Source of the DNA: Syncephalis fuscata
Lineage: Eukaryota; Zoopagomycota; Zoopagomycetes; Zoopagales; Piptocephalidaceae
Assembly (NCBI GenBank): GCA_025786725.1
Contig: JAHLTZ010000046.1
Span: 1 to 64,000 of the forward strand
DNA: 64,000 bases
Direction of reading: 5' to 3'
The position numbers and the translations under genes are program-made. The notes below the pieces were generated by a model. The model was not told the origin of the DNA, searched no databases, and saw only the letters and a list, made by a program, of their open reading frames with translations. Shown piece after piece: positions 1 through 25,134 of the stretch; the first letter of the stretch is position 1, and each line of letters begins with the position of its first letter.

Positions 1-172
1 TGGTGGTGGCAGAACGCTAAATGGTGGTGGCAGAACGGTGGACTGATGGTGGCAGAACGGTGAAATGATGATGGCAGAACGGTGAAATGGTGGTGGCAGA
101 ACGCTAAAATGGTGGTGGCAGAACGGTGGACTGATGGTGGCAGAACGGTGAAATGGTGGTGGCAGAACAGCG
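1..172 (+). repeat. Minisatellite array 1 (~22 bp unit, truncated by window edge)
   Basis: At least seven tandem units of about 22 bp, G-rich strand on plus, built on the core TGGTGGTGGCAGAACG. The variable end of each unit reads GTGAAA, GTGGAC or CTAAAA. The array is cut by the window start, so its full length is unknown. It abuts the outer end of the left arm of unit A. The same unit occurs in inverted orientation at the other end of A and at both ends of unit B. Confidence 0.95.
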
Positions 173-3100
173 GTATTCCACCATCTCACCGTTTTGCCAG
201 TTCACCGTCCTGCCACTACCATTCTGCCATTCCGCCATTCTGCCTTGACAGTCTCTGACTATCGACTATCAGTCTACATTTAAAGCATTTGCCGTTTCTT
301 TGAAGCTACAGGTAAGCATTGTTATGTTTTATTAAATATGTATTATTGTGCGGACAAAGACGGTGTAGCACAAATAGCCATGTACGCTTTTATAATCGGC
401 TGTTTACTATGGTAAGACAACTGGCGCTGCTATGTAATAAATACTTGCTTATTTTTACTTCAAACTACTTACCATTTAATCAACTGTTATTTTTACATAG
501 ATATTTAGGTATGCAGTGTTAGTGTTGCTGTTTGCATTCATGCACTGTGTTTTGTTTTCAAATAATACTAGCTTTTAACAAGATCACAAGCCTTCTTCCT
601 TGCCGTGTTATAATATGGAATAATATAGATTCAAATGAATGGTCAAATAAAGTGTAAAATAATGGCAATAAAGGTATAGTATGCGTATTGCACAAGCAAT
701 CAAGTAAAATATACAAACAATACGGCGAGTAACAAATAAACGAGTTTTATCAATAAGACATGATGAGTATAGTTTAGAATAGAATCAATGGATAAAATAA
801 TAGTGAAGATATACATAGACGATTAAGTAAGTACAATAAATTGAACCTATAGCAATAAAGCTAGCGGCAATAAAATACCTGCTGTAAATGGGTTGTGCTT
901 ATTATATGATCGATCGATATATGACTTAATAAATACAGAATAGTAATGATATGGGTGGATAGAAGGCATATGCATACTAAATACTAAATCTATAATGACG
1001 AGTATTTTAATGGCTAATGCCATCCACCACACAGTTTCATGCCCAATAGATTGGATGTTGTTAAATTTAGCCATTTATCTTTCAAATCATACTAGATCAT
1101 CAGCAAATTGTTTAATATTATTATACTAGGCTTAACACAATCAAACCAATCAAACGAACCACTATTGCTATTATTAAAATGACCAGTGTGGGTGTAGCTT
1201 TATAGAATGTAACTATTTTTAGTATACTAGCAGTATAGTACAATTCAAATAATTGAATGGCATAACAAAGCTACTAGACACTATACTAATGTTGATTTAT
1301 AGCATATTTATTTAGTTAAAGGATGCTAAATGTTAAAGCGTTTATAAAAAAGTAGCTGTATTTGCTACTACCTATAATCAGGTTAGGCATGGCATTACAA
1401 TGGGAATCAGCACTATGATATAAGCATCATGTCAAATAGTTGACCTCCATATACACACACATTCAACGATACAAGAAGGCAACAGCAATGGCAATGTCTA
1501 TTAGCGAGTATAAGTACGACAACCACCGCTCGTTATAGTTGCAATGTTGGTGGTAATATTCAACTGACATCAGCGGCGATCAATGTCAATACACGCCAGC
1601 AAGCTGCACATATTAGCTACTGTATTAATAAGCAGTATAGTTAAGCAACATACAGCAACATACAGCAGCATACAGCAACATACAGCTGTTGAAACGCATG
1701 TTAGTACGCATGCAACACCAGCGATTGATTCTATGCTATAATTACAAAATAAATAGTAGCGTCATTATGGTTGATTGTAATCAAAATACGTGCCGACGGC
1801 CAATATATATTAAATATTGTTAATATTTAATGCTAATATTGCCATTTCTATTTGTGGTGCCTTTTCACGATTTTTCCAACATATGTCAGTTATATGCGCC
1901 AATGCGTCAACGCCATGCGGTTATAGTAGATGCTATTACGTATTTCTAGCTGTATGATTGATAGAATCAAGAATTGGTAAAGTTAATTAATAAAGGCTAT
2001 AATAGTCCTTTTTTTGTTATTTTGACAATAAAAGCCCACACAAATACTAATTAAAAAATGTATCGATTGCTTAATAGATAGCCAATTGCAACTTGACAGT
2101 ATCAATCCCTGTAGCCATAATTGACCGTTAACAATTGCCGTCGATTTGCTAGTTATGTCGGCCAACCAACAGCGTCGGTGACATGATATAATTAATAAAT
2201 ATATTAATGATTGGTATTGCATATAGCTACAGTATGTGTGTAATAGCACAATAGCACGCAATGGTACACCGTCAGCCACACGTGCTGTGAACGGTATGCT
2301 AATCATGTACATTGGTTGTTTTATTAGCATTGGTGGTGGCGTGTATCAAGTATAACCGGCATCATTGGTAGATCATGTTATGCGGCATTGCCACTGGCAA
2401 CTATACAGATGCTATCAGTCATCCGTAATAGTACTGACAATGTTAATGGCTGTGAATGTGTTATACAGACAATGGCGATTTTGGCTACATACCGTATACA
2501 ATTATGTAGTGGAGTGTATAACAATAACAGCCATTGGTATAGTATTGTCCATTGGTGCGCACACCATACTGTTGCTGGTATACAAAAGCAAATCTTATGC
2601 ATAGTCATCAGTTAGTAACAGTGCATATTATGCTGCCACTTGCTAAACGAGCAGACGTTAACTGTCCATGTTATTTGTAGATATGTTTCAAATTGGCAAG
2701 TACCAACACTAGGTTTACTACTTGTGTCGCCAATTACCCAGTAACAACTGGCATGACAATTCTCAATAGCCAGCATTAGTATACATGTTTATATTGACGA
2801 TCGGTAATCTTCAACAGTAATTTCAATTGTGGCATTTATTAAACACAGCTCACTACTGTCGTTGGCAATACAAATAGCAACTATTTTGCCAATTCCTAGT
2901 TGTTGCACTGCAATACATAGCATTGGTTTACAATGGTAGTAAGCTGTATAAATAGCGCTCACTAACTGTTAGTATCGGTAGCTATATCATGCCAATGATG
3001 CACGCAGTATATTCAACACTAACTGTCGACCAGTAACCAGCAATACACAATAACAGATAGCACTAATGTAGCCATATGATTAACTGATACCCATGTTACA

Positions 3101-5995
3101 TGTCTATTAACCTATAGCCGGCTATGGAAATAATCAAATATCCATACTTTATCGGTGTTGACGCGCGATTACTAGCATATTGCTTAACAGAATATTGCTA
3201 TACTATTATATTGGCTATTGTTAATCAGTTGATACAGCTAATCAGCAGGTATCCGTAAATACTATGCAACCAGCTAGTCGGTAAACAACATGGATTAATA
3301 GCGTTTGGCCAGCTATATATATATATTGAAAACATGCATGGTGCTTAGTTGTCCATTTGCTAATAGCGTTTGCTATTAATTTCTACTATTTAGATAGATA
3401 TTAACAATACGATCTTGTCAATAGAATAATGCTAATTTCTATAGTAATCATGAGCAATATTACAATGTTGCCATTGCCAGCTAACTAATACAGCTGGCTA
3501 TACGTTGATGGCAACAGTAATTTAATGTTTTCATGTTCACTACTGACCATTGACGGCTGCTTGATTGTTTATTAATGCTTATATATATATTATACAATTA
3601 TCCATGTTAGTAATGTAGCTGTTTATATGTTATAATTGATACATATTCATTATATAGCGCTCTGTAATAACGTTCATTGGCACTATTCCAGCGTCAAAAC
3701 TATTAACTTTGTCATAACATCGTTGGAAACTTTAAATAGCTGTATTAGCTCAATATCGATCTGTACCAAAATAGTTGCCATGTACATGCACAATAGTCTT
3801 TTTGTAATGCTCTATAGTCTGCAATACATTAATCGAATGATCTATGTCAAAGTATCACTATCATATCTATATGCTAAATATACTCATACATGTTTTGGTT
3901 ATTGCCAAGGTATGGCCAATTTCACTGTCGACTCGTTTATTGCACCGTTTAATCAATTTACCCATCACATCGGCTTTAATACTAAGAAGCCGTCCCAATC
4001 TTGTTGCCTTCTTTTGAATATGCTTAATTCAACGGAACATTTTACTTTGTTCTGTTTACTTACAAATCAACAACAGCTCATCAATACTACCAATTCCCAG
4101 TTGTAGACTGCCAATAAGCAGTGCAAATCCATCAGATATATCGTCGAAATTACATAATCGATTACGCCAGGTAGAACAACAACATAAGCGATCAGCTACT
4201 GAATACAACGTAATATGCTGTGTGCATGTGACGCTAATCGATGATGAAATAAAATGATACCTTTACGCATCAATGCCACAAATACTGACATTGGTTCTAA
4301 ATAATTAGCACTCTGTGTATTAGTATAGAATGAACGGAAACAGAATAGATCATAGCTACAAGGTAGCTAGCATTTCTTACGTGTATCCTCGAGCTTAATA
4401 GCATCAGTCGTCAATGGATGTATACGGAATATCTAGTATTCAATGTACTTTAATTCTGATTAATTGTCTATTCTATATCATTCATTAACAAATGCACGTA
4501 TTTCTGAATCAGTGGATGTTACTGCATCCACTTGGAACAAAGCTTTGCGCAATAGATTGGCTGTCTAGTGTATATCCATTAATATTATGGCTTCATTTTT
4601 CGCAGAAGCAATGCAGCTTTTCAATAATGCTGTCGCCGCATATTTGAACTAATATCAACCGACATTGCTGAAGCAAAGCTGTTACACCGGTCAGCTGTAC
4701 TTAATAGCGCTAATCAAATTCAACATCCTCCAGTCATAAATCCAATTTTCAGCGCTTGTATACAAATTTAATTGAGCAGTGCCGCGTATTGTATAGAAGT
4801 GGTCGCTGATCTAGCCGTTATTGGCATATTACGCCATAAATAAGCTGACAGTCTAAATTAACCACCAACAAAAGCTGTCGATTGAATAATCCTTGTAACT
4901 TCAAAATAAACAAAACACGGATTTACCAGAATATACATATACAATACAGTTTAATGATTTGTAGCGGCGTGTAGCAATAGCTGACGGCGTAATAAAAATC
5001 TCGACCCAATTAACAAGCGTGCTTATATACCACAAAAGGCTATGTAGCCGCTGCAACAACTGTAGCTTGCTATTTACAAATATTCAACAGCATAGAAGAA
5101 GCCATGCTGAATAGACTGAATGAAAGTAGACATGAACGACAAGCGGCAGATCTTACAACAAATAAAGCTACTAACAAGTGAACCACTGTAACAAACTGCG
5201 CACGTTTATTAGAAAACAAAGCACTACGCAATAAGACGAGTAGACACGCTAAAGTGTATAGACAGGAAAGTAACTGCTGCAGTGTATATGGACCAATGAG
5301 AGATAAAAAGGAATGAGCTGAGCTTTACAACCAATAGACCTAGCGCCAAATAAACAGCAGTTTTGAGTAGCGCATGGCTATCATATGACAGAACGATACA
5401 GAATGAAACGAATATATAAAGTAAAAAGTATGAATAGCAGTGGTATAGCTACTAAGCATATATGCATGAGTGAATGAGCGACATTAGTCGACATTTATAA
5501 ATAATAAAGCTAGAACAGAAATAAACATATTTTTTGGATAGAGCAAGGCTATACGAGTATAGAGTGATGTATAGAATGATAAATGTACGGTAAGAAAGCA
5601 TGTAAAACGACATCAAAGCTATAGTGTATATAGCGCAATGAATGGAGAGAGAAAAGTGTATTGGGACAAACAGATGATAGAATGTACCTAGTATGTTATA
5701 AAATGGTATATAGAGGTGTGGGATATAAAAGAATGGTATACGTGAATAGAGGATATATGCATACTGGATAATGAATCTATAATGATGAGTATTTTGATGA
5801 TAGACGTCACTCACCGCCCATCATCATGTTCAATAGACTGGATGTTATTAAAAATAGTCATTTGACCACCAAGCAAACAACAAATGCGATGATGTGATAT
5901 TAAACAAAACCACCATTGTCCCATGTTCATAGAATAGATGTCTAGTTCAGTTACGCGATTATTATTAAAAAGTCATTTAACACAAATTATAATAA
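173..5995 (+). repeat. Unit A left inverted arm
   Basis: The reverse complement of 8420-14240. Short open frames found at 319-522, 847-1074, 1983-2330, 3636-4106 and 5452-5814 reappear at mirrored positions in the other arm with almost unchanged sequence. They are AT-rich, hydrophobic-biased and resemble no family, so I read the arm as non-coding. Only scattered differences separate the arms, for example around 2570/11840. The match fades at about 5990, where the centre begins. Nothing gene-like was found in this stretch. Confidence 0.92.
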
Positions 5996-6260
5996 AGCTA
6001 TAGCGCACTGAGTGGACTGAGTGAAGCTGATTGAAATGCATAATAAATATAAAGTGTTCAACCTGTCATTGACTAATAGTAGGATGTAAAGATACAATTT
6101 AATGATATTATTAGATTAAAAATATATGCATACTAAATAATAAATCTATGATGGCGGTATTTTGGACCCTGACGTCAGGTACTTTTAATTTCATGTTCAC
6201 TAGAACGTGTGTGTAGGTCAGTTGCGCGAATACTATTAAATGTAGTCATCTAACACTAAA
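5996..6260 (-). repeat. Copy of unit-B end sequence inside the centre of unit A
   Basis: This stretch closely follows the outer part of unit B's right arm (about 22720-22945) in the same orientation. Shared text includes the cgcactgag/ggactgagtgaagctg segment, the tatgcatact...aataaatctatgatg box and the ggtactttaattttatgttcact segment. It shows that A and B share sequence and that A's centre contains a B-type terminus. It is diverged from B and is not matched by the other side of A's centre. Confidence 0.75.
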
Positions 6261-6463
6261 TTGCAATTATCATTTAATTAAAAAACATTTTTTTTATAAA
6301 CATTCAAATTATTCTGCCCACTTAACCGGCTTAGAAGTCAAAGAACACCAACTGTAAATATGCTGTACCCTTTATTATGTTTTGAGGTTTTAAAGCTGTC
6401 TTTATCTTCAATTAATCTCTAAAAATTTAAAGTAATTATGGTTTTATAAGCTTAATATTTGCT

Positions 6464-6490
6464 AATTCGACGCATTTATAAAGTCGAATT
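6464..6490 (+). promoter_or_regulatory. Small inverted repeat enclosing a TATA-like box upstream of the zinc-finger gene
   Basis: AATTCGAC and GTCGAATT form a perfect 8 bp inverted repeat around the loop gcatttataaa. It lies about 105-130 bp before the zinc-finger start codon. The position and the TATAAA in the loop suggest a core-promoter or operator-like site. Function is inference from location only. Confidence 0.3.
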
Positions 6491-6595
6491 TTAAACAAAA
6501 GCAATGCCATTTGCTAGTGCATAAACTATATTTTTGGAATAAAACTAGTATTTTTGTGAATAAAGAACTAATCAAACAGTTATTCTCTAAACATC

Positions 6596-7797
6596 ATGAC
6601 CGCGAATAAATCACGTTGTCCAACGTGTGGAAAGGGTTTTCCGTCGTTAGCCAGCCGTAGGAAGCACGACTTTGAAGAACACAAGGCACAAATAAACGTA
6701 TGGAAAGGTGAAGGTAAGTAATGTAGCTACGACTGAATAAATCAATCCACTTAACGATCTTCTACGACAGAACTACTTTTTGTTTGTACTAAACAGATGG
6801 GCGTTTTGGATGTCCGTTTAAAAATTGCACTGGCAGTTGCGCTACAACGGAAGGATTCAAAAAGCATCTAAAAAAGCACGAAGCTTATATTACTTATTTC
6901 GAGATGGAAAACAAGGAAGCTCAAGTCGGAGCAAAACGACTTTATCAAGATGATAAAAAAGCGACAAGCTTTAAAAACAGTGATGACGACGTATCACTGT
7001 TCACCAAAAAAAAGCAGAAGATTGGAAAGGAGCTATATTCTACTCCTACTCCTACTCATAGCACACCACTGGCGGATGCATCGCTTTCCTACGATGATGC
7101 AATTCTTAGTGCATTCAACGCGCTTCAAGCGTCGCCAAAATGCCAACAGAAGGCAAAACTAGTTGCAAAATCTAGCAAGTTACATCCTCTGTCGCTCACA
7201 ACTGGAGATGGGCGTTCAACGTTTCACGTGCTGGCTGTCTCTGAAGCAATCTCACGGATTCTCTTTGCTCAGCCAAAAGGGGAAATTATTGCACCACTGA
7301 TTACACCCTCAGCAGCAGACAATGCCTGCCTTAATAGTAGCAAGACAGCTGACAACCGTTTACGTCATTGCTTGCAACATGGGCTGTTTGGTGAAAAACT
7401 GAAACAATGTGACATCATTGAAATGAACGATGAAATCGCCGAGCTATTACAAAGAGACTGGCATATTTGGCCACAAATGCGCTACGTATCAGCGCAATTA
7501 TTCAGCAATGCTATACTTGTTGAAGATAAGCAAATTCTACTGATCAACTGCGTGGAGGCGTACGGCCGCAGATGTACCATCGATGTACATCATGAGACAG
7601 CGTGGCGTTCACCATCTGTGCCAGATGATGACGACCTTCGCTATAATGGAATTAAAGTTGTGGTGGACACATACAACAACTCAAAAAGACTGTTAATAGG
7701 AACGCATTCTTCAAATCTTCTTGTGACGTCGAGTGTCCTATTAAGAAATAATCAACAGATTATCCAGCTCGGCCCAGTACAAAGGACATTAGTCTAA
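6596..7797 (+). CDS. Two-finger C2H2 protein encoded in the centre of unit A (372 aa, one intron)
   Basis: Exon 1 is 6596-6713 and exon 2 is 6797-7797, with a GTAAGT...ACAG intron of 83 nt. The spliced frame runs 372 codons. Residues 8-29 form a C-x2-C-x12-H-x4-H finger (CPTCGKGF start). A second finger straddles the splice junction: C-x4-C-x12-H-x3-H at about residues 44-66, beginning CPFKNC. A basic, Lys-rich segment with KKKQK follows and could be a nuclear signal. The remaining ~280 residues match nothing I recognise. The gene is the only convincing one in the first 25 kb and sits exactly between the palindromic arms, so it is probably the element's own gene. A DNA-binding or regulatory role is inferred from the fingers. 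I see no transposase catalytic motif. Confidence 0.7.
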
Positions 7798-8340
7798 AAG
7801 ATCCACGGGTTTATTTGGACTCTAAAAGCATTGAAAAATCAATATGCCTTTTCAATAAGGGCAATAAATGTTGTCACATTGATTATCTTGATTCATGTCA
7901 CAGTTACGCCAGGTTCGGTCGAAGTTCCATTGTCCTTCGACATACACACTTTGCCGCTCAAGCTCAGCGGCAACCAATTCTGTCACTCGCCGCCCTTTTA
8001 CCATTTGGACATTGGCGGACTATGAAATTTCTCGATTAACACAAGCAAAAATCGGATCGCAGTTGTTCCAAACAATTGCAACTGCTGTAATCAATAATGG
8101 CGAAAGGCCAAGCTTCAAATGTCAGATGTGCAAAACATTGCAAACCAATGCAAAGAAGATAAAGTCTTGGTGTTCATAAAGCTTATTCTTAAACAGTTCG
8201 ACGGCCAAGATCATATTCTAATTATCGGCAACAAGATATTGGACACACATCTGCAAGGCTTAGCAAACATTGTTACAGGAAGTTTAAGCGATGCAAACAA
8301 GGCGGTAAAGAAAGAACTGTCTAAAATATTTCAAAAATAA
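7798..8340 (+). pseudogene. Coding-like continuation of the zinc-finger gene, split over several frames
   Basis: After the stop at 7797 the sequence keeps protein-like composition but switches frame repeatedly: SLKDPRVYLDSK at about 7791-7826, then VPLSFDIHTLPLKL near 7925, then TQAKIGSQLFQTIATAV near 8045. It ends with an uninterrupted stretch to the stop at 8340, including DHILIIGNKILDTHLQ. The simplest reading is that the protein was once about 550 residues and that its 3' half has lost frame through small deletions, real or from sequencing. The alternative is several unrecognised introns, but splice sites do not connect these pieces convincingly. Confidence 0.45.
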
Positions 8341-8419
8341 TTAATGCAATGCTATCTTATTCAGCTGTCTTGTTTGTATTAAAGCTATCGCATTAACATT
8401 AAACGACTTATTGACCATT

Positions 8420-11400
8420 TATTATAATTTGTGTTAAATGATTTTTTAATAATATTGCGTAATTGGACTACACATCTATTCTACTAAAGATAGGGACAAA
8501 TGGTGAGTTTTATTTAATATCACATCATCGCATTTGTTGTTTGCTTGGTGGTCAAATGACTATTTTTAATAACATCCAGTCTATTGAACATGATGATGGG
8601 CGGTGAGTGACGTCTATCATCAAAATACTCATCATTATAGATTCATTATCCAGTATGCATATATCCTCTATTCACGTATACCATTCTTTTATATCCCACA
8701 CCTCTATATACCATTTTATAACATACTAGGTACATTCTATCATCTGTTTGTCCCAATACACTTTTCTCTCTCCATTCATTGCGCTATATACACTATAGCT
8801 TTGATGTCGTTTTACATGCTTTCTTACCGTACATTTATCATTCTATACATCACTCTATACTCGTATAGCCTTGCTCTATCCAAAATATGTTTATTTCTGT
8901 TCTAGCTTTATTATTTATAAATGTCGACTAATGTCGCTCATTCACTCATGCATATATGCTTAGTAGCTATACCACTGCTATTCATACTTTATATATTCGT
9001 TTCATTCTGTATCGTTCTGTCATATGATAGCCATGCGCTACTCAAAACTGCTGTTTATTTGGCGCTAGGTCTATTGGTTGTAAAGCTCAGCTCATTCCTT
9101 TCTTATCTCTCATTGGTCCATATACACTGCAGCAGTTACTTTCCTGTCTATACACTTTAGCGTGTCTACTCGTCTTATTGCGTAGTGCTTTGTTTTCTAA
9201 TAAACGTGCGCAGTTTGTTACAGTGGTTCACTTGTTAGTAGCTTTATTTGTTGTAAGATCTGCCGCTTGTCGTTCATGTCTACTTTCATTCAGTCTATTC
9301 AGCATGGCCTTCTTCTATGCTGTTGAATATTTGTAAATAGCAAGCTACAGTTGTTGCAGCGGCTACATAGCCTTTTGTGGTATATAAGCACGCTTGTTAA
9401 TTGGGTCGAGATTTTTATTACGCCGTCAGCTATTGCTACACGCCGCTACAAATCATTAAACTGTATTGTATATGTATATTCTGGTAAATCCGTGTTTTGT
9501 TTATTTTGAAGTTACAAGGATTATTCAATCGACAGCTTTTGTTGGTGGTTAATTTAGACTGTCAGCTTATTTATGGCGTAATATGCCAATAACGGCTAGA
9601 TCAGCGACCACTTCTATACAATACGCGGCACTGCTCAATTAAATTTGTATACAAGCGCTGAAAATTGGATTTATGACTGGAGGATGTTGAATTTGATTTA
9701 GCGCTATTAAGTACAGCTGACCGGTGTAACAGCTTTGCTTCAGCAATGTCGGTTGATATTAGTTCAAATATGCGGCGACAGCATTATTGAAAAGCTGCAT
9801 TGCTTCTGCGAAAAATGAAGCCATAATATTAATGGATATACACTAGACAGCCAATCTATTGCGCAAAGCTTTGTTCCAAGTGGATGCATAACATCCACTG
9901 ATTCAGAAATACGTGCATTTGTTAATGAATGATATAGAATAGACAATTAATCAGAATTAAAGTACATTGAATACTAGATATTCCGTATACATCCATTGAC
10001 GACTGATGCTATTAAGCTCGAGGATACACGTAAGAAATGCTAGCTACCTTGTAGCTATGATCTATTCTGTTTCCGTTCATTCTATACTAATACACAGAGT
10101 GCTAATTATTTAGAACCAATGTCAGTATTTGTGGCATTGATGCGTAAAGGTATCATTTTATTTCATCATCGATTAGCGTCACATGCACACAGCATATTAC
10201 GTTGTATTCAGTAGCTGATCGCTTATGTTGTTGTTCTACCTGGCGTAATCGATTATGTAATTTCGACAATATATCTGATGGATTTGCACTGCTTATTGGC
10301 AGTCTACAACTGGGAATTGGTAGTATTGATGAGCTGTTGTTGATTTGTAAGTAAACAGAACAAAGTAAAATGTTCCGTTGAATTAAGCATATTCAAAAGA
10401 AGGCAACAAGATTGGGACGGCTTCTTAGTATTAAAGCCGATGTGATGGGTAAATTGATTAAACGGTGCAATAAACGAGTCGACAGTGAAATTGGCCATAC
10501 CTTGGCAATAACCAAAACATGTATGAGTATATTTAGCATATAGATATGATAGTGATACTTTGACATAGATCATTCGATTAATGTATTGCAGACTATAGAG
10601 CATTACAAAAAGACTATTGTGCATGTACATGGCAACTATTTTGGTACAGATCGATATTGAGCTAATACAGCTATTTAAAGTTTCCAACGATGTTATGACA
10701 AAGTTAATAGTTTTGACGCTGGAATAGTGCCAATGAACGTTATTACAGAGCGCTATATAATGAATATGTGTCGATTATAATATATAAACAGCTACATTAC
10801 TAACACGGATAATTGTATAATATATATATAAGCATTAATAAACAATCAAGCAGCCGTCAATGGTCAGTAGTGAACATGAAAACATTAAATTACTGTTGCC
10901 ATCAACGTATAGCCAGCTGTATTAGTTAGCTGGCAATGGCAACATTGTAATATTGCTCATGATTACTATAGAAATTAGCATTATTCTATTGACAAGATCG
11001 TATTGTTAATATCTATCTAAATAGTAGAAATTAATAGCAAACGCTATTAGCAAATGGACAACTAAGCACCATGCATGTTTTCAATATATATATATAGCTG
11101 GCCAAACGCTATTAATCCATGTTGTTTACCGACTAGCTGGTTGCATAGTATTTACGGATACCTGCTGATTAGCTGTATCAACTGATTAACAATAGCCAAT
11201 ATAATAGTATAGCAATATTCTGTTAAGCAATATGCTAGTAATCGCGCGTCAACACCGATAAAGTATGGATATTTGATTATTTCCATAGCCGGCTATAGGT
11301 TAATAGACATGTAACATGGGTATCAGTTAATCATATGGCTACATTAGTGCTATCTGTTATTGTGTATTGCTGGTTACTGGTCGACAGTTAGTGTTGAATA

Positions 11401-14240: not shown

Positions 14241-15225
14241 TGTTCTGCCACCACCATTTCACCGTTCTGCCACCACCATTTCACCGTTCTGCCACCACCA
14301 TTTTACGTTCTGCCACCACCATTTTAGCGTTCTGCCACCACCATTTTAGCGTTCTGCCACCACCAGTCCACCGTTCTGCCACCACCATTTCACCGTTCTG
14401 CCACCATCAGTCCACCGTTCTGCCACCACCATTTCACCGTTCTGCCACCACCATTTTAGCGTTCTGCCACCACCATTTCACCGTTCTGCCACCACCATTT
14501 TAGCGTTCTGCCACCACCATTTTAGCGTTCTGCCACCACCAGTCCACCGTTCTGCCACCACCAGTCCACCGTTCTGCCACCACCAGTCCACCGTTCTGCC
14601 ACCATCAGTCCACCGTTCTGCCACCACCAGTCCACCGTTCTGCCACCATCAGTCCACCGTTCTGCCACCACCAGTCCACCGTTCTGCCACCATCAGTCCA
14701 CCGTTCTGCCACCATCAGTCCACCGTTCTGCCACCACCATTTTAGCGTTCTGCCACCACCATTTCACCGTTCTGCCACCACCATTTCACCGTTCTGCCAC
14801 CACCATTTCACCGTTCTGCCACCACCAGTCCACCGTTCTGCCACCACCATTTTAGCGTTCTGCCACCACCATTTCACCGTTCTGCCATCACCACTTCACC
14901 GTTCTACCACCACCATTTCACCGTTCTGCCACCACCATTTCACCGTTCTGCCACCACCATTTCACCGTTCTGCCACCACCATTTCACCGTTCTGCCACCA
15001 CCATTTTAGCGTTCTGCCACCACCATTTCACCGTTCTGCCACCACCATTTCACCGTTCTGCCACCACCATTTCACCGTTCTGCCACCATCAGTCCACCGT
15101 TCTGCCACCACCAGTCCACCGTTCTGCCACCACCATTTCACCGTTCTGCCACCACCATTTCACCGTTCTGCCACCACCATTTCACCATTTTGCCACCACC
15201 ATTTTACCGTTGAACAATTGAACGG
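14241..15225 (-). repeat. Minisatellite array 2 between units A and B (~45 units)
   Basis: About 45 tandem units of ~22 bp, C-rich strand on plus, core CGTTCTGCCACCACCA. Three interspersed unit types differ in the bases after this core: TTTCAC, GTCCAC and TTTTAG. The variant CCACCATCA is found almost only with GTCCAC. The last unit (from about 15190) degenerates into the outer end of unit B. Because 22 is not a multiple of three the array has no coding logic. Confidence 0.97.
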
Positions 15226-18200
15226 TTGAACCGTCGGACTCACTTCCACCACTTTTGACTCCACTCTCTTTTCATTCCTTTTAGTGAACATAAAATTAAA
15301 GTACCTGACATCTGGGTCCAAAATACCATCATCATAGATTTATTATCCAGTATGCATATATTTTTAATCCAACAATATCATTAAGATGTATCTTTACATC
15401 CTACTCTTAGTCAATGACAGGTTGAACACTTATATTTATTATGCATTTCAATCAGCTTCACTCAGTCCGCTCAGTGCGTTATAGCTTTATTATAGTTATT
15501 TTTATTATTAATAACTGTTTATTACAATTATTAACCATTTAATGTGATTTGTGTCAAATGGCTACTTTTGATATTCGCGCAACTGGCCTGCACATTTGTT
15601 CTATTGAACATGGGGACGGGTGGTGAGTTTTATTAACGATCAAATCATCACATTTGGTGTGATTTGGTGGTTAAATGGCTATTTTGATTATTTACGCGTT
15701 TGAACTAAACATTCAACCTATTGAACATGGAGCTGGGTGGTGAGCGACATCAAAGTTTAAAACACTTGTCATTATAGATTTATTATCCAGTATGCATATA
15801 TCTCTATCTACCTACACCACTCCCTTTTATTCCGCACTTCTATGTATCATTCTACGACATACTGGACACATTCTGTTCATTAAGCACACCAGCAACTCTA
15901 CTCATTCCCTCCTTGCGTTATATGCACTATAGTTTGACATCGTTTTATATGTCATTTTACACTCGCCCATCTATGCTCAATCCAAAACTGGTTTTATTTT
16001 TGTTCTAGCGTTATTATTAACAACTGTCGACTAATGTCGCTCATTGATCATGCATATATGCTCAGTAACTATACCACTGCTGTCCATACTTTTTACTTTG
16101 TATATTCGTTTTATTATCCAGTAAATACGCGCTAGCTATTACCGTTGTCTGTTTGGTTCTAGCACCACTATTAGAAAAGTTCACGCAAGTTGCTTATCTG
16201 CTCATGCATATATGCTCGATAGCTTTAACAAAGCTAGTTGTCTTTTAACTAGCATAGCTGATAGCTGTTATGCTATTTTACCGTACAGTTACTATGCGCC
16301 ATCAATAACTACTGTCAGCTTGACGCCAGCTTTAATATTGACAAGTTTGACTCGTTCCGCTTAGTCATTCCTTTCCAAGGCGCACTATAGCTTTAATGCT
16401 GCTACTCACACAATTACTTTTGGTATTTTATTTGCTCCATATTATTGTATGCTTAATGGCTATGCTTTATTTGCAGAAGCTATACGTTCCTTGTTAGCTG
16501 TTTGTTGCAAAGTTTAGCTCTGAGCACTTCTTTTACTCTTTGCACACAAACGCGCAAGTAGAATAGCCTTCTTACACTGCTAGTGCTCTTTTTGCTGTTT
16601 TCCAGTGCTGATATGTTGCAATGGTATCGAACGGGCCAGCGATGAACTGGTATAAGCTATTATACCAAATAAAGCTTGTTATTACAAAATAGATATTCGC
16701 TATGGGTGTTATGTATACGGCTTTAAAAGTGTCGTATAGCTTATTGCAGGTAATCATGTATTGCGCTATAGCTACTTGAGCACAAGGACAAAGTGTACGT
16801 ATATTTACCATGTGGCCGTAGACAGTGCTGGCTACTCTATTCGACACAGTTAAAAGCAATAATAAACTTGGCCAAAAACAATTTGCTTTAAAGATTTTAT
16901 TAGATGGATTGCATTAGTATTCAACATATAAGCCATTGGTATTTACTGTAGCTACAAGCTTGAAACTGGTCCCATTTAGCTGCTTTGCGTGCCGCCTAAA
17001 TGATCGGCATTGTTTGAAATAAAGCCATAGCTGATATTGCCAAATAGACAGATTTACTTGCTATGCTACATGTAAAGTTTAGCATAGATCATTTTTACGC
17101 TTAGTCGGTTAAGCCGTGTAATCTAGATTTAATCCATCAGCTTATCGCGTTGTAAAGAGCTTGCCAATATTAATGTTCAGACAATATAATGACAGCAATA
17201 AAGACTGTTTTGCAATAAGTGTACAAGAAAACACACGGTTTACTACATATTACACTAATAGTTACATGTACTGAAGATTCTACTGGAATGGTTGTAGCTG
17301 CTTATACGGAAGACTAAGAGCAATTGCGTAGTACATTGGTCATAGACGGTTTTAGACGACTCATGTTTTATTACGACATTTTCCACAACTATCACAATAC
17401 ATAAGCTGGCTTTACCGCTCCTCCGAACCAACATTGCACCTTTATCTTCTCTTTCTACTCTTTACCACTCGATATACGCTACACTCATTCGCCCTTACTG
17501 CCATTTGTTGTCCAATATGCTTTGCACTTGCTAGCCGTCTAATGATTACAAGATCACTGCTGGTTGCTGCTATATGTACTAAGGTCGGTAAACGGGCGTG
17601 GGAGGTGCGATGCAGTTGTGCCTTTTGGCTATGAAGCACTGGATATGCAGTGTTCTAGAAGCTATATATCACGCAGTGTGTACCCCAGCATGCTGTAGAA
17701 GGCGCTTGTCTGCACATAGTTGATTGGTCTTTTGTATAGTAACATTGGTACGCTTACCGTGTGTTTGTTTGCGAGGTTGCCTTGCTGAGTATCTGGCTGT
17801 TGAGGCGACATAAGGTTTGCGCTTGAAGATATCTGATATCTGATGGTGCAGAGCAAATGTTGTTTGGACAACCACTACTTATTGCGGTGTAGTCAAGCAG
17901 CAAACATCATTGGCACATGTGGCTCATCTCGTTTACTGACCCTCTTCAATAGATATAGATTTAAGCGATATTTAGATTTGGCAAGAACAGGGCCACAATA
18001 TGCTGTACAGTCATCCGGTTTGTACTAGTCTATCATTATTTATGTATTTCTTTGTTTAAATAAATAAATGTAGCATTTCTTATTTATTAACATACTACTA
18101 TTAGTTGCGTTCATATAAATACAGACATCTTCCCATTTAATAATAGTACTAGTTGTTTCTGCTATTGTTATTACACTGATAATAAACAACCTATTAAGCC

Positions 18201-18470
18201 ATTGAATGTGCTTTGAAGGCAAACGATTAAATTTGATGCATCCATGCAGTTGAGCTAGACAATTGCTCTGTTGAACATAATACGAGTGGTGAGTGAATCA
18301 AAGTTTAAAATATTTATTGGCATAGATGTATTATCCAGTACGCTTATATCCAACATTTACTTGTATCATTCGTCTATTATCGCATACTATTATGTATTAT
18401 TCTACAATACACTAGCCGCATTCTGGTTATTTATGCGGCAACACACCTCACTCATCTCAACTATTACGCT
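15226..18470 (+). repeat. Unit B left inverted arm
   Basis: Reverse complement of 19760-22990, with a few small indels and substitutions (for example tgcaataagc changes near 16740/21470). It contains repeated modules at about 15290-15480, 15590-15700, 15718-15930 and 18268-18470, each with the box ATTATCCAGTATGCATATAT or a close variant. No gene was recognised. The open frames at 17434-17634 and 17843-18028 are mirrored in the other arm and look random. Confidence 0.9.
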
Positions 18471-19759
18471 GTACATTCACTAAATTGTATGCTGTTTATT
18501 GTATAACGCATAAGAGCTATGCAACGCCATTGTTGTTTTGATTCCAGATCTATTATTAAATAAGTGCTCTTTTATGTTTTAGCGCTTTTGGCATCGGAAA
18601 GGCGCTGTAGCATTAACACCATTTGTGCGGGCGCTTGAATGGCCATATTGGTACACTGTAGCTTTAGTACTGTAGATTTGACATAGATATTATATACTTT
18701 ATATTTATAGAGTGTTGTTATATATTGTTATACAGTATATTGGCCACACTACATCGATTGGCGTTGTCCATTTTACCCTAGCTTTATCTTTAAAGTTGGC
18801 CACTTATTACACTCATTTTGCTAATGCCCATGTTACACGGTTACAATTAGACATACTAGAAAATTAACAGTAAATTAACTAAAAATATACTGCAGTCCAA
18901 TTGATTCTGCCTACTCAAACGACAATTATGGCCATACTAAGCCAATAAAATGAGATGTGCAAATACTTAGTATTTTATCCAGAATTGTACATGCATATCA
19001 GAGTAATATTGGTTAAATATTGGTATAAATAATAAGTATACAGATAAATTTGTTTATTTACTGATGTAGTTTGTTTATTATGATAGTGCATTGATCAGTG
19101 TATGGTATATTGGCTATTAGCTATCAATTCAGCCTATTCTAGTGCAGCCACTGTAGCCACTGTAGCCATTTCAGCTAAGGGCCGCTTAGTATGGTCCTCG
19201 CAGGTCATTACTTGTATTTCAGCTACTGTATTTTGTTTATTTTACGTAGTTTTACGTAGTTTACGCATCACTTGCTTCCCTGCGTTGCTTCTACGTATTT
19301 GTCTATGTAATAGTGCACTGCACACCATACTTGCTCCATTTCACTTATGTTGGCCTCAGTCCACACTGTATATCGCTCAGTACCTTCCCAACAGTCCCAC
19401 TTTTTGATATGAATATATAACAGCATCAAAAGCTAAGTTGAGATAAACCCAAGGTTTAAAGCTGTGAGCCAACCATTGCACCATTTCCGGTTGGCCTTGC
19501 CATTGCTGTGAATACGCATTGTTCCGTTGATCAGCACCAAAGCCATTGCTAATTGACAACAGCTGGTTTGTCTACCAGAAGGTTAAACAGCGTGGATGTG
19601 CATGAGCAAAATAGTTTAATTTTATTAATGATAAAGCTAGTGCAAAAATAAATATGGTTGGATAGATGAAGGATGGACGATAATAAAATGATATGTAGAA
19701 TAGCAAATGTACGGTAAAAAACATAAAAGCAGTGTCAAACAGTGTATATAGCGTAATGA
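18471..19759. other. Unit B centre, no supportable gene
   Basis: Non-palindromic sequence of about 1.3 kb between the B arms, in the position that holds the zinc-finger gene in A. The longest open frame (19102-19407, 101 codons) has an Ala/Ser-rich then Cys/Leu-rich composition, no recognisable motif, and no clear splice context. I cannot support a gene. It may be the remains of a lost cargo region. Confidence 0.6.
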
Positions 19760-22700
19760 GCAAAGTATATTGCCGCATGTAATAACCAGAATGCGGCTAG
19801 TGTATTGTAGAATAATACATAATAGTATGCGATAATAACGAATGATACAAGTAAATGTTGGATATAAGCGTACTGGATAATACATCTATGCCAATAAATA
19901 TTTTAAACTTTGATTCACTCACCACTCGTTATTATGTTCAACAGAGCAATTGTCTAGCTCAACTGCATGGATGCATCAAATTTAATCGTTTGCCTTCAAA
20001 GCACATTCAATGGCTTAATAGGTTGTTTATTATCAGTGTAATAACAATAGCAGAAACAACTAGTACTATTATTAAATGGGAAGATGTCTGTATTTATATG
20101 AACGCAACTAATAGTAGTATGTTAATAAATAAGAAATGCTACATTTATTTATTTAAACAAAGAAATACATAAATAATGATAGACTAGTACAAACCGGATG
20201 ACTGTACAGCATATTGTGGCCCTGTTCTTGCCAAATCTAAATATCGCTTAAATCTATATCTATTGAAGAGGGTCAGTAAACGAGATGAGCCACATGTGCC
20301 AATGATGTTTGCTGCTTGACTACACCGCAATAAGTAGTGGTTGTCCAAACAACATTTGCTCTGCACCATCAGATATCAGATATCTTCAAGCGCAAACCTT
20401 ATGTCGCCTCAACAGCCAGATACTCAGCAAGGCAACCTCGCAAACAAACACACGGTAAGCGTACCAATGTTACTATACAAAAGACCAATCAACTATGTGC
20501 AGACAAGCGCCTTCTACAGCATGCTGGGGTACACACTGCGTGATATATAGCTTCTAGAACACTGCATATCCAGTGCTTCATAGCCAAAAGGCACAACTGC
20601 ATCGCACCTCCCACGCCCGTTTACCGACCTTAGTACATATAGCAGCAACCAGCAGTGATCTTGTAATCATTAGACGGCTAGCAAGTGCAAAGCATATTGG
20701 ACAACAAATGGCAGTAAGGGCGAATGAGTGTAGTGTATATCGAGTGGTAAAGAGTAGAAAGAGAAGATAAAGGTGCAGTGTTGGTTCGGAGGAGCGGTAA
20801 AGCCAGCTTATGTATTGTGATAGTTGTGGAAAATGTCGTAATAAAACATGAGTCGTCTAAAACCGTCTATGACCAATGTACTACGCAATTGCTCTTAGTC
20901 TTCCGTATAAGCAGCTACAACCATTCCAGTAGAATCTTCAGTACATGTAACTATTAGTGTAATATGTAGTAAACCGTGTGTTTTCTTGTACACTTATTGC
21001 AAAAGAGTCTTTATTGCTGTCATTATATTGTCTGAACATTAATATTGGCAAGCTCTTTACAACGCGATAAGCTGATGGATTAAATCTAGATTACACGGCT
21101 TAACCGACTAAGCGTAAAAATGATCTATGCTAAACTTTACATGTAACATAGCAAGTAAATCTGTCTATTTGGCAATATCAGCTATGGCTTTATTTCAAAC
21201 AATGCCGATCATTTAGGCGGCACGCAAAGCAGCTAAATGGGACCAGTTTCAAGCTTGTAGCTACAGTAAATACCAATGGCTTATATGTTGAATACTAATG
21301 CAATCCATCTAATAAAATCTTTAAAGCAAATTGTTTTTGGCCAAGTTTATTATTGCTTTTAACTGTGTCGAATAGAGTAGCCAGCACTGTCTACGGCCAC
21401 ATGGTAAATATACGTACACTTTGTCCTTATGCTCAAGTAGCTATAGCGCAATACATGATTACTCTGCAATAAGCTATACGACACTTTTAAAGCACGTATA
21501 CATAACACCCATAGCGAATATCTATTTTGTAATAACAAGCTTTATTTGGTATAATAGCTTATACCAGTTCATCGCTGGCCCGTTCGATACCATTGCAACA
21601 TATCAGCACTGGAAAACAGCAAAAAGAGCACTAGCAGTGTAAGAAGGCTATTCTACTTGCGCGTTTGTGTGCAAAGAGTAAAAGAAGTGCTCAGAGCTAA
21701 ACTTTGCAACAAACAGCTAACAAGGAACGTATAGCTTCTGCAAATAAAGCATAGCCATTAAGCATACAATAATATGGAGCAAATAAAATACCAAAAGTAA
21801 TTGTGTGAGTAGCAGCATTAAAGCTATAGTGCGCCTTGGAAAGGAATGACTAAGCGGAACGAGTCAAACTTGTCAATATTAAAGCTGGCGTCAAGCTGAC
21901 AGTAGTTATTGATGGCGCATAGTAACTGTACGGTAAAATAGCATAACAGCTATCAGCTATGCTAGTTAAAAGACAACTAGCTTTGTTAAAGCTATCGAGC
22001 ATATATGCATGAGCAGATAAGCAACTTGCGTGAACTTTTCTAATAATGGTGCTAGAACCAAACAGACAACGGTAATAGCTAGCGCGTATTTACTGGATAA
22101 TAAAACGAATATACAAAGTAAAAAGTATGGACAGCAGTGGTATAGCTACTGAGCATATATGCATGATCAATGAGCGACATTAGTCGACAGTTGTTAATAA
22201 TAACGCTAGAACAAAAATAAAACCAGTTTTGGATTGAGCATAGATGGGCGAGTGTAAAATGACATATAAAACAATGTCAAACTATAGTGCATATAACGCA
22301 AGGAGGGAATGAGTAGAGTGTGCTGGTGTGCTTAATGAACAGAATGTGTCCAGTATGTCGTAGAATGATACATAGAAGTGCGGAATAAAAGGGAGTGGTG
22401 TAGGTAGATAGAGATATATGCATACTGGATAATAAATCTATAATGACAAGTGTTTTAAACTTTGATGTCGCTCACCACCCAGCTCCATGTTCAATAGGTT
22501 GAATGTTTAGTTCAAACGCGTAAATAATCAAAATAGCCATTTAACCACCAAATCACACCAAATGTGATGATTTGATCGTTAATAAAACTCACCACCCGTC
22601 CCCATGTTCAATAGAACAAATGTGCAGGCCAGTTGCGCGAATATCAAAAGTAGCCATTTGACACAAATCACATTAAATGGTTAATAATTGTAATAAACAG

Positions 22701-22990
22701 TTATTAATAATAAAAATAACTATAATAAAGCTATAACGCACTGAGCGGACTGAGTGAAGCTGATTGAAATGCATAATAAATATAAGTGTTCAACCTGTCA
22801 TTGACTAAGAGTAGGATGTAAAGATACATCTTAATGATATTGTTGGATTAAAAATATATGCATACTGGATAATAAATCTATGATGATGGTATTTTGGACC
22901 CAGATGTCAGGTACTTTAATTTTATGTTCACTAAAAGGAATGAAAAGAGAGTGGAGTCAAAAGTGGTGGAAGTGAGTCCGACGGTTCAAC
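19760..22990 (-). repeat. Unit B right inverted arm
   Basis: Mirror of 15226-18470. Its outer part (22720-22945) has a related copy inside unit A's centre (5996-6260). It ends with the same gttcaaccgttcaattgttc motif that borders array 2, then runs into array 3. No gene was recognised. Confidence 0.9.
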
Positions 22991-24195
22991 CGTTCAATTG
23001 TTCAACGGTAAAATGGTGGTGGCAAAATGGTGAAATGGTGGTGGCAGAACGGTGAAATGGTGGTGGCAGAACGGTGGACTGATGGTGGCAGAACGGTGGA
23101 CTGATGGTGGCAGAACGGTGGACTGATGGTGGCAGAACGGTGAAATGGTGGTGGCAGAACGGTGAAATGGTGGTGGCAGAACGGTGAAATGGTGGTGGCA
23201 GAACGGTGAAATGGTGGTGGCAGAACGGTGAAATGGTGGTGGCAGAACGGTGGACTGATGGTGGCAGAACGGTGGACTGGTGGTGGCAGAACGGTGGACT
23301 GGTGGTGGCAGAACGCTAAAATGGTGGTGGCAGAACGCTAAAATGGTGGTGGCAGAACGGTGAAATGGTGGTGGCAGAACGGTGAAATGGTGGTGGCAGA
23401 ACGGTGAAATGGTGGTGGCAGAACGGTGAAATGGTGGTGGCAGAACGGTGAAATGGTGGTGGCAGAACGGTGGACTGGTGGTGGCAGAACGGTGAAATGG
23501 TGGTGGCAGAACGGTGGACTGGTGGTGGCAGAACGGTGGACTGGTGGTGGCAGAACGGTGGACTGGTGGTGGCAGAACGCTAAAATGGTGGTGGCAGAAC
23601 GCTAAAATGGTGGTGGCAGAACGCTAAAATGGTGGTGGCAGAACGGTGAAATGGTGGTGGCAGAACGGTGAAATGGTGGTGGCAGAACGGTGAAATGGTG
23701 GTGGCAGAACGGTGGACTGATGGTGGCAGAACGCTAAAATGGTGGTGGCAGAACGGTGAAATGGTGGTGGCAGAACGGTGAAATGGTGGTGGCAGAACGG
23801 TGGACTGATGGTGGCAGAACGGTGGACTGGTGGTGGCAGAACGGTGAAATGGTGGTGGCAGAACGGTGGACTGGTGGTGGCAGAACGGTGAATGGTGGTG
23901 GCAGAACGGTGGACTGATGGTGGCAGAACGGTGAATGGTGGTGGCAGAACGGTGGACTGGTGGTGGCAGAACGGTGAAATGGTGGTGGCAGAACGGTGGA
24001 CTGATGGTGGCAGAACGGTGAAATGGTGGTGGCAGAACGGTGGACTGGTGGTGGCAGAACGCTAAAATGGTGGTGGCAGAACGGTGAAATGGTGGTGGCA
24101 GAACGCTAAAATGGTGGTGGCAGAACGGTGAAATGGTGGTGGCAGAACGCTAAAATGGTGGTGGCAGAACGGTGGACTGGTGATGGCAGAACAGT
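22991..24195 (+). repeat. Minisatellite array 3 (~54 units)
   Basis: About 54 units of the same ~22 bp repeat with the G-rich strand on plus, made from the same three unit types (GTGAAA, GTGGAC, CTAAAA). A few units are one base short (gtgaatgg near 23890 and 23930). It joins unit B's right end to a new copy of unit A's outer end. Confidence 0.97.
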
Positions 24196-25134
24196 GGTAT
24201 TCCACCATCTCACCGTTTTGCCAGTCCACCGTCCTGCCACTACCATTCTGCCATTCCGCCATTCTGCCTTGACAGTCTCTGACTATCGACTATCAGTCTA
24301 CATTTAAAGCATTTGCCGTTTCTTTGAAGCTACAGGTAAGCATTGTTATGTTTTATTAAATATGTATTATTGTGCGGACAAAGACGGTGTAGCACAAATA
24401 GCCATGTACGCTTTTATAATCGGCTGTTTACTATGGTAAGACAACTGGCGCTGCTATGTAATAAATACTTGCTTATTTTTACTTCAAACTACTTACCATT
24501 TAATCAACTGTTATTTTTACATAGATATTTAGGTATGAAGTGTTAGTGTTGCTGTTTGCATTCATGCACTGTGTTTTGTTTTCAAATAATACTAGCTTTT
24601 AAAAAGATCACAAGCCTTCTTCCTTGCCGTGTTATAATATGGAATAATATAGATTCAAATGAATGGTCAAATAAAGTGTAAAATAATGGCAATAAAGGTA
24701 TAGTATGCGTATTGCACAAGCAATCAAGTAAAATATACAAACAATACGGCGAGTAACAAATAAACGAGTTTTATCAATAAGACATGATGAGTATAGTTTA
24801 GAATAGAATCAATGGATAAAATAATAGTGAAGATATACATAGACGATTAAGTAAGTACAATAAATTGAACCTATAGCAATAAAGCTAGCGGCAATAAAAT
24901 ACCTGCTGTAAATGGGTTGTGCTTATTATATGATCGATCGATATATGACTTAATAAATACAGAATAGTAATGATATGGGTGGATAGAAGGCATATGCATA
25001 CTAAATACTAAATCTATAATGACGAGTATTTTAATGGCTAATGCCATCCACCACACAGTTTCATGCCCAATAGATTGGATGTTGTTAAATTTAGCCATTT
25101 ATCTTTCAAATCATACTAGATCATCAGCAAATTG
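24196..25134 (+). repeat. Truncated third copy of the unit A end
   Basis: Nearly identical to 172-1110, at a constant offset of about 24024 bases. It has only isolated differences, for example tatgcagtg/tatgaagtg near 24536 and taacaagatc/taaaaagatc near 24600. Identity stops abruptly after gatcatcagcaaattgt (about 25134), where unrelated AT-rich sequence begins. This is therefore the junction of the composite with gene space or with a deletion. Confidence 0.93.

What the first reader, a model, noticed from the sequence alone, without database searches (positions are those of the whole stretch)
1..25134. Alternating giant palindromes A-array-B-array-A: a candidate new class of fold-back element
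The first 25 kb consist of two long palindromic units (5.8 kb and 3.2 kb arms), each bounded on both sides by the same 22 bp minisatellite, plus a truncated third unit start. The arrays are shared between neighbours and always point G-rich strand outward. No transposase, integrase or reverse transcriptase is visible. Long inverted ends with tandem subrepeats recall Drosophila Foldback/Galileo elements, but scale, alternation and zinc-finger cargo differ from anything I can name.
Basis: partly seen in the sequence, partly recalled or inferred. Interest (0 to 1): 0.88.

Follow-up and report, generated by a model that had tools for sequence, protein, structure and literature searches.

The report
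Mirror-image repeat array in a fungus
The start of this fungal contig is part of a repeat in which one roughly 10-kb DNA block is copied in alternating direction, probably through copying errors at inverted repeats; it is a real and unusual repeat, but the evidence does not show a new kind of jumping element.

Summary
The structure is in the assembly as described. The window is the left end of contig C241 (150,201 bp) of Syncephalis fuscata, a mycoparasitic fungus. A (arms 5.8 kb, spacer 2.4 kb with a zinc-finger gene) and B (arms 3.2 kb, spacer 1.3 kb) alternate, separated by 22-bp minisatellites; 13 other contigs that I mapped carry parts of the system. The simplest description is one ~10-kb block S (A half, minisatellite, B half) repeated in alternating orientation around two different centres. 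Core arms are at least 99% alike. Beyond the innermost 60-110 bp they keep almost no memory of which spacer side they adjoin, so arms recombine and spacers flip. The innermost 60-110 bp differ by 7-10%, as expected of old inverted repeats that seeded the palindromes. No intact unit in unique DNA and no transposase domain were found, and four dispersed part-copies show no convincing target-site duplication; yet a shared A-arm end at 12 dispersed places keeps a transposon origin of the parts open. Best reading: inverted-repeat-seeded palindromic amplification that became a ~24-kb, mirror-symmetric repeat array. A still-replicating inverted-dimer circle is not excluded. Everything rests on one assembly; no reads were available.

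The parts
1..168 (-). 22-bp minisatellite, left array, cut by the contig end (7.7 copies visible; contig C220 shows the same array with 17 units)
169..5997 (+). A arm, left copy (A half of block S)
5998..8417 (+). A spacer, asymmetric centre of palindrome A; its first 208 bp are 92% like the outer part of the B arm, inverted
6596..8340 (+). C2H2-like zinc-finger protein gene (annotated protein BDF19DRAFT_486166, 372 aa); in copies C99 and C217 the frame runs on to the position of 8340; each of the four assembled copies has at least one single-base gap or insertion in the gene, at different places
   Evidence: start at 6596 and intron read by eye
8418..14241 (-). A arm, right copy, inverted
14242..15211 (+). 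22-bp minisatellite between A and B, 44 units
15212..18455 (+). B arm, left copy (B half of block S); outer end carries a relic of a 16-bp minisatellite that is a full array in C159 and C248
   Evidence: relic read by eye
18456..19756 (+). B spacer, asymmetric centre of palindrome B, no recognised gene
19757..23003 (-). B arm, right copy, inverted (matches the left arm from 19770)
23004..24196 (-). 22-bp minisatellite between B and the next A, 54 units
24197..25139 (+). truncated third A arm (arm positions 1-947), 99.5% identical to the first: the edge of the array
25140..33000 (.). flank beyond the array, no other match longer than 77 bases

Best explanation
A mirror-symmetric (dihedral) macrosatellite. 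A block S of about 10 kb (A arm, minisatellite, B arm) is repeated in alternating orientation and turns around at two different asymmetric centres: a 2.4-kb spacer with a zinc-finger gene and a 1.3-kb spacer. Inferred origin: inverted copies of dispersed repeats flanked each spacer; template switching or strand annealing between them turned replication around and made an inverted duplication at each end of S, giving a ~24-kb inverted dimer. Inferred spread: unequal exchange, or excision and re-integration of the dimer. Supported within this assembly: arms behave as one recombining pool, spacers occur in both relative orientations, and minisatellites change length fast.
For: (1) 10 two-sided 22-bp arrays join A to B, one array pair in C89 joins B to B. 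(2) Five B units differ by 0.15-0.46% and each pair differs in at least one flanking array. (3) A solitary, non-palindromic S lies inside an 819,655-bp contig (C278:468,368-476,496); its right half and flank recur on C82. (4) Within 110 bp (A) or 60 bp (B) of the spacer, arms of different units on the same spacer side differ by 2.0 or 0.6 bases on average, on opposite sides by 8.3 or 5.75. Further out the classes are nearly equal: A 2.33 v 2.67, 2.67 v 2.67, 6.17 v 6.00, 8.50 v 9.17; B 1.95 v 2.10, 5.30 v 5.10, 3.20 v 4.05. (5) Four-gamete violations: 283 of 990 site pairs in 8 A arms, 687 of 1431 in 14 B arms; 8 partial A rows and 2 partial B rows had been left out. (6) C241 has A(+)B(+), C26 has A(+)B(-); C220 joined to C241 reads B(-)A(+)B(+). 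(7) The inner ~600 bp of the A arm matches about 30 other places, many of the matches ending at the arm/spacer boundary, so inverted pairs were available as seeds (capped list).
Against: One assembly with residual errors: flips and mosaic arms could partly be assembly switches between near-identical arms. Excess divergence beside the spacer is also expected if conversion fails at arm ends. C82 shows that the culture may carry two haplotypes, so some units may be alleles. The 'old edges' expected of a satellite are seen only in part: A arms in C248 and C89 are 84-95% identical, but the edge A arm in C241 is 99.5%, the first kb of the one in C232 98.4%, and B pieces in C232 and C248 98%. The spacers are long for fork-turnaround models that need close inverted repeats (recalled). 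No contig holds more than A-B-A. Within-unit arms are closer than between-unit arms for A (3 units) but not for B (5 units), so arm-to-arm conversion inside a unit is not clear.
Confidence: 0.55

Rival explanations
1. The same inverted dimer exists mainly as an extrachromosomal circle or linear molecule of about 24 kb (two inverted copies of S separated by two unique segments); copies in C241, C232, C248 and C278 are integrations.
For: The topology is that of an inverted-dimer circle. In C278 the solitary S is flanked by 1.4-kb direct repeats (466,885-468,277 and 475,860-477,257, 98.8%), as single-crossover integration would leave. Six of the seven contigs with core units (C99, C217, C26, C206, C216, C220; not C241) consist of this repeat alone.
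Against: No closure was seen in the block maps, though C26 could not be judged. At least nine array variants exist, more than the two of one circle. Diverged A arms in C248 and C89 show that some copies have been chromosomal for long.
Confidence: 0.17
2. A non-autonomous fold-back DNA transposon family (Foldback, Galileo or Tetris-like) with giant terminal inverted repeats, clustered by nested or tandem insertion, or an array built from such elements.
For: Long inverted ends, variable middle, tandem repeats at the arm ends. A-arm copies at 12 places on 11 contigs start at the same arm position 77, and B-arm copies share starts at 317 or 1523. Tetris shows that fold-back elements can give rise to satellites (PMC4079207, abstract and passages).
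Against: No intact unit in unique DNA in the contigs mapped; no transposase domain; four dispersed B-arm copies show no shared flanking word above 5 bases, two of them share their flanks. Tandem repeats lie between units, not inside the inverted repeats. Arms are about 2-5 times longer than the TIRs quoted for Tetris (1.7 kb) and Galileo (1.2 kb).
Confidence: 0.15
3. A chromosome-end or centromere structure built of palindromes.
For: Three contigs of 110-187 kb (C241, C232, C248) begin in the repeat. No TTAGG-type telomere array was found. Inverted repeats around a core recall fission-yeast centromeres (recalled).
Against: A telomerase domain is encoded, so ordinary telomeres are expected. The arrays are variable, and none of 14 contig ends read for 400 bp carries them. 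One copy lies 468 kb from the nearer-numbered end of an 820-kb contig and 343 kb from the other.
Confidence: 0.07
4. An assembly or amplification artefact (fold-back chimeras).
For: Palindromes at a contig end are a usual artefact; contigs are short and some ends are poor (C26 right end).
Against: Arms differ by substitutions, the same junctions recur on several contigs with different arrays, and S sits beside the same flank on two contigs.
Confidence: 0.06

Closest known systems
Inverted-duplication amplicons of Leishmania formed at inverted repeats (PMC4028189, PMC4256157, passages seen; H circles of L. tarentolae recalled)
   Same: A segment in both orientations around joints seeded at inverted repeats; linear and circular forms are known.
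   Different: Those are drug-selected and extrachromosomal (linear ones of 125-565 kb in the passages seen). Here at least some copies are chromosomal and diverged, with hypervariable minisatellites and no known selection.
Ampliconic palindromes of sex chromosomes (PMC8981503, PMC7023750, search listing only)
   Same: Arms above 99% identical, asymmetric spacer, sequence exchange between arms.
   Different: Here arms of many units form one pool, units alternate in an array, and nothing links them to sex.
Macrosatellites and satellite arrays (general knowledge)
   Same: Long repeated unit in constant order, high identity among units.
   Different: The repeat has mirror symmetry: head-to-head and tail-to-tail instead of head-to-tail; decay towards the edges is only partly seen.
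Tetris, Galileo and other fold-back transposons (PMC4079207 abstract and passages; PMC3573991 passages)
   Same: Long inverted repeats associated with tandem repeats, heterogeneous middle, rearranged forms.
   Different: Tetris TIRs reach 1,735 bp with 8-10 bp target-site duplications; Galileo TIRs about 0.3-1.2 kb. Here arms are 3.2 and 5.8 kb, no duplication is shown, arrays lie between units.

Membership tests
Fold-back transposon (Foldback/Galileo/Tetris type) | Long terminal inverted repeats around a variable middle | tested here: met
   Arms of 5.8 and 3.2 kb around spacers of 2.4 and 1.3 kb
Fold-back transposon (Foldback/Galileo/Tetris type) | Tandem subrepeats inside the inverted repeats | tested here: not met
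   22-bp arrays lie between units and are shared by neighbours; the two arrays around the C241 B unit differ
Fold-back transposon (Foldback/Galileo/Tetris type) | Target-site duplications at intact insertions | tested here: inconclusive
   No intact insertion found among mapped contigs; four partial B-arm copies with both flanks share no word above 5 bases (5-base words in two of four); the common A-arm end at position 77 was not tested
Fold-back transposon (Foldback/Galileo/Tetris type) | Transposase, or shared ends with an autonomous element | tested here: inconclusive
   No transposase domain in 12 ORFs and the annotated protein; an autonomous partner elsewhere was not searched for
Fold-back transposon (Foldback/Galileo/Tetris type) | Dispersed as a discrete unit | tested here: inconclusive
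   In the 14 mapped contigs no complete A or B unit stands alone, but parts of arms are dispersed with common ends, and many listed places were not fetched
Macrosatellite | Several units in constant order | tested here: met
   A-array-B-array-A on C241 and C26; same junctions on C99, C206, C216, C220, C82, C278
Macrosatellite | Homogeneous core, diverged edges | tested here: inconclusive
   A arms 84-95% in C248 and C89; but 99.5% at the C241 edge, 98.4% in the first kb at the C232 edge, and 98% for B pieces in C232 and C248
Macrosatellite | One long chromosomal array | not testable with these tools
   Needs long reads; contigs end inside the repeat
Inverted-repeat-seeded palindromic amplicon | Segment in alternating orientation with two different joints | tested here: met
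Inverted-repeat-seeded palindromic amplicon | Older inverted repeats at the joints | tested here: inconclusive
   Innermost 60-110 bp diverged 7-10% while the stretch 100-1000 bp from the spacer has 0 to 6 substitutions in ten units; failure of conversion at arm ends would look alike
Inverted-repeat-seeded palindromic amplicon | Extrachromosomal form or copy-number gain under selection | not testable with these tools
   No reads, no strains
Sex-chromosome-type palindrome | Arm-to-arm gene conversion within one palindrome | tested here: inconclusive
   Within-unit arms closer than between-unit arms for A (3 units) but not for B (5 units)
Telomere repeat | Uniform telomerase-made repeat at chromosome ends | tested here: not met
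   Arrays are variable (23 unit types seen at least twice, some of them perhaps read errors) and internal; absent from the 400 bp read at each of 14 contig ends

The most novel reading that the evidence does not exclude
The palindromes are the chromosomal footprint of a self-maintaining inverted-dimer replicon in a zoopagalean fungus: a ~24-kb circle with two inverted copies of S, whose spacers flip by recombination, whose zinc-finger protein helps to keep or spread it, and which re-enters chromosomes at homologous dispersed repeats.
Probability: 0.1. Interest if true: 0.85.

Novelty: new variant of a known kind. Interest (0 to 1): 0.5.

Why it matters
Palindromic amplification is mostly known from drug selection, cancer and sex chromosomes (partly recalled). 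Here it appears as a standing, mirror-symmetric repeat in an early-diverging fungus, with a solitary copy of the starting block S, some diverged copies and hypervariable arrays beside it. That gives natural material to ask how palindromes start, multiply and are kept alike, and whether spacers flip at high rate. It also shows how such arrays can be mistaken for transposons or for assembly artefacts.

Tried and rejected
Telomere idea: TTAGG-type patterns gave no array; four short matches against 11 for the reversed control pattern; a telomerase domain is present; 14 contig ends of 400 bp hold no telomere-like array and no 22-bp motif. Dropped as the main reading.

Transposon idea: ends shared by dispersed copies (A-arm position 77 at 12 places; B-arm 317 and 1523) look like element ends. 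Flanks of four B-arm copies gave no convincing duplication, two of them (C182, C247) share flanks on both sides and so are segmental copies; of a fifth (C46) only one side was read. No A-arm end was tested. Kept as a rival. The two smaller rivals went up by 0.01 each, to keep the sum at one.

Flip seen by C217 against C26: the arrays at the C217 right end and the C26 left end match over 176 bases without substitution although the A spacer lies on opposite sides. But the other C26 array scores almost as high (142 v 144) and both matching arrays are at contig ends, so I do not count it as proof.

C26 as a closed circle: its right end differs from the other copies compared by 1.1-3.2% (0.55% from C123), and its right array is unreadable, so closure can neither be shown nor excluded.

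Zinc-finger family: AlphaFold2 of the Mucor mucedo relative with 11 aligned sequences gave mean pLDDT 50.5, pTM 0.32, too poor for a fold search, so none was run. PDB sequence searches gave nothing; NCBIfam nothing. Rfam and tRNA scans of the window gave nothing. One search was a script that failed on a file name and was repeated; only waited.

Papers: (Syncephalis; Zoopagomycota with palindromes; alternating orientation; fungal inverted tandem repeats) listed nothing whose title or abstract start describes this structure; the library holds open-licence papers only. Searches looked for comparison systems.
Full report
WHAT AND WHERE. The window is bases 1-64,000 of contig C241 (150,201 bp) of a 28.95-Mb, 299-contig genome. 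A protein in the A spacer is 100% identical to BDF19DRAFT_486166 of Syncephalis fuscata on a contig of 150,201 bp, so the organism is most likely that zoopagalean fungus (lineage).

OBSERVATION. Self-comparison gives: array 1-168; A arm 169-5997; A spacer 5998-8417; inverted A arm 8418-14241; array 14242-15211; B arm 15212-18455; B spacer 18456-19756; inverted B arm 19757-23003; array 23004-24196; truncated A arm 24197-25139; then DNA without long matches elsewhere. The G-rich strand of the two complete arrays carries motifs of four GG runs over 84 and 86% of its length, against 0-2.5% in the A arm, A spacer, B arm, B spacer and the stretch 25,151-64,000.

OTHER COPIES. Searches of the genome with parts of A and B gave many places (capped lists). 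Ten 22-bp arrays with both sides visible join the outer end of A to the outer end of B: C241 two, C26 two, C99, C206, C216, C220, C82 and C278 one each. In C89 two arrays meet head to head between two B ends. Seven arrays run into a contig end. In C232 a B joins an A with no array. In C159 and C248 the B unit is bounded by a 16-bp minisatellite (about 30 and 128 units) and leads through about 0.9 kb of other DNA to the inner end of an A arm. In C123, 4.4 kb with a 409-aa ORF separate B and A pieces; that ORF has no Pfam match above cut-off.

A SIMPLER DESCRIPTION. Because A and B share an array, the true block is S = A arm, array, B arm (about 10 kb), repeated in alternating orientation, with the A spacer at one kind of joint and the B spacer at the other. 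S also occurs alone: C278:468,368-476,496, 468 kb from one end and 343 kb from the other end of the contig, flanked by 1.4-kb direct repeats. Contig C82 shows the right half of the same place and its flank (compared to C82 position 8,750 and from 10,001 to 19,758). Beyond the repeat the two differ by 11 substitutions (0.40%) and one gap over 2,743 bp, so C82 is best read as a second haplotype; a segmental copy is not excluded. The array there has 61 units in C82 and 8 in C278.

UNITS ARE DISTINCT. Coding the 22-bp variants gives at least nine different arrays; the completely visible and readable ones have 8 to 84 units. The same array occurs at the right of B in C220, at the left of A in C241 and between A and B in C99 (C220 and C241: 166 aligned bases, no substitution, three gaps), so C220 most likely overlaps the left end of C241. 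Five B units (C241, C26, C206, C216, C220) differ pairwise by 0.15-0.46% substitutions. C206 and C216 share their left array class but not the right one. C99 and C241 carry nearly the same A unit (0.11%). Some of these may be alleles.

SPACER FLIPS. C241 holds A(+)B(+), C26 holds A(+)B(-); with the C220 overlap one chain reads B(-)A(+)B(+). If the assembly is right, at least one spacer has been inverted.

ONE POOL OF ARMS. Over whole arms, left and right arms of one unit are about as different as arms of different units; by distance classes, within-unit A arms are somewhat closer (for example 1.0 v 2.3-2.7 substitutions at 110-1000 bp, 3 units), B arms are not (5 units). Sites are mosaic: 283 of 990 pairs of informative sites in eight A arms and 687 of 1431 in fourteen B arms show all four combinations (eight incomplete A rows, and the two solitary B rows C82 and C278, left out; alignment faults near gaps may add some). 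In the innermost 110 bp of A and 60 bp of B, arms on the same spacer side of different units differ by 2.0 and 0.6 bases on average, arms on opposite sides by 8.3 and 5.75. Further out the two classes are nearly equal; the largest gap is 3.20 v 4.05 in the outermost B zone (C159 left out, C217 not entered). Crossovers or conversion inside the arms, not a site-specific switch at the spacer edge, explain this. Within one unit, left-right substitutions cluster at the centre: 8 of 19, 12 of 17, 5 of 24 and 5 of 14 lie within 100 bp of the A spacer (C241, C99, C26, C217 part), and 6 of 14, 7 of 11, 5 of 16, 5 of 24, 5 of 17 and 7 of 40 within 50 bp of the B spacer (C241, C26, C206, C216, C220, C159). 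These innermost segments look like the older inverted repeats that seeded each palindrome; failure of conversion at the arm end is the alternative.

SPACERS. Among four A-spacer copies 21 alignment columns vary: 13 are single-base gaps, 8 are substitutions, 4 of these an adjacent run private to the window copy. The five core B spacers differ at three substitution sites and one gap; C159 and C232 account for the other 12 of 16 variable columns. Spacers thus vary less than arms; arms have relatives outside the array, which may feed variation in (inference).

AGE STRUCTURE IS MIXED. Core arms are 98.9-100% identical to the window copy, apart from short or poor contig ends (C26 right end 97.4%, a 284-bp piece in C216 96.8%). 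A arms in C248 and C89 are 84-95%. But the A arm at the C241 edge is 99.5%, the first kilobase at the C232 edge 98.4% (94.2% over the longer match), and B pieces in C232 and C248 are 98%. So decay towards the edges, the mark of a satellite array, is shown only in part.

ARMS ARE MOSAICS OF DISPERSED REPEATS. Twelve places on eleven contigs match the A arm from the same point, arm position 77, and B-arm copies start at 317 or 1523; the inner 600 bp of the A arm is found at about 30 places at about 80%. Four B-arm copies with both flanks read share no flanking word above 5 bases. No Pfam transposase was found in the arm and spacer ORFs tested. Common end points without shown duplications leave a transposon origin of the parts open.

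THE GENE. The A-spacer protein has weak C2H2 matches below cut-off and belongs to a small family: relatives from Mucor mucedo, Rhizopus, Rhizomucor pusillus and unnamed sources have 31-52% identity over 27-94% of the query, with 19 invariant columns in nine sequences. In its own genome a diverged relative with a 513-aa frame (C35) and one with seven stops (C232) exist. Mucorales as hosts of Syncephalis is recalled; the distance does not suggest recent transfer. Its function is unknown; the fold prediction was too poor.

MECHANISM. Seen within the assembly: alternation, distinct units, pooled arms, both relative spacer orientations, array length change. Inferred: inverted repeats at both ends of S caused inverted duplication, as described for Leishmania at inverted repeats (PMC4028189 and PMC4256157, passages seen); the inverted dimer then multiplied by unequal exchange or through an extrachromosomal form. 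Not shown: chromosomal position, copy number, any function.

CONCLUSION. It is best filed as a mirror-symmetric macrosatellite made by palindromic amplification, not, on present evidence, as a new class of fold-back transposon.

Noticed in passing
window 42972-46866: A 2.4-kb direct tandem duplication around a PF02458 transferase gene; one copy keeps a 453-aa frame (45505-46866), the other shows a 185-aa frame.
   Followed up: no
window 38706-39518 and 48248-49072, minus strand: Two similar-looking cellulase-type genes about 9 kb apart; the first matches PF00150, the second was seen as an ORF only.
   Followed up: no
G000 C278:472406-491000 and C82: Two versions of one place, 0.40% apart in the flank, with minisatellites of 8 and 61 units.
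   Followed up: partly
G000, whole assembly: No TTAGG-type telomere array found although a telomerase RNA-binding domain is encoded at C256:679971-680530; the telomere sequence of this fungus is not evident.
   Followed up: partly
L016:445-911 and 8659-9134 (C159); L018:1650-3693 (C248): A different, 16-bp minisatellite takes the place of the 22-bp one at the outer end of B; a short relic of it remains at the B end in the window.
   Followed up: partly
window 169-245: The outer end of the A arm holds degenerate 22-bp units in the opposite direction to the adjoining array, perhaps an old head-to-head array junction (read by eye).
   Followed up: no
L035 (C278 end), L039 (C1 start), L037 (C232 end): C278 end and C1 start share a sequence, and it and the C232 end look like diverged pieces of the same dispersed repeats, so the assembly may break at them (read by eye); a review says Zoopagomycotina have very few transposable elements (PMC10386755, passage).
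   Followed up: no
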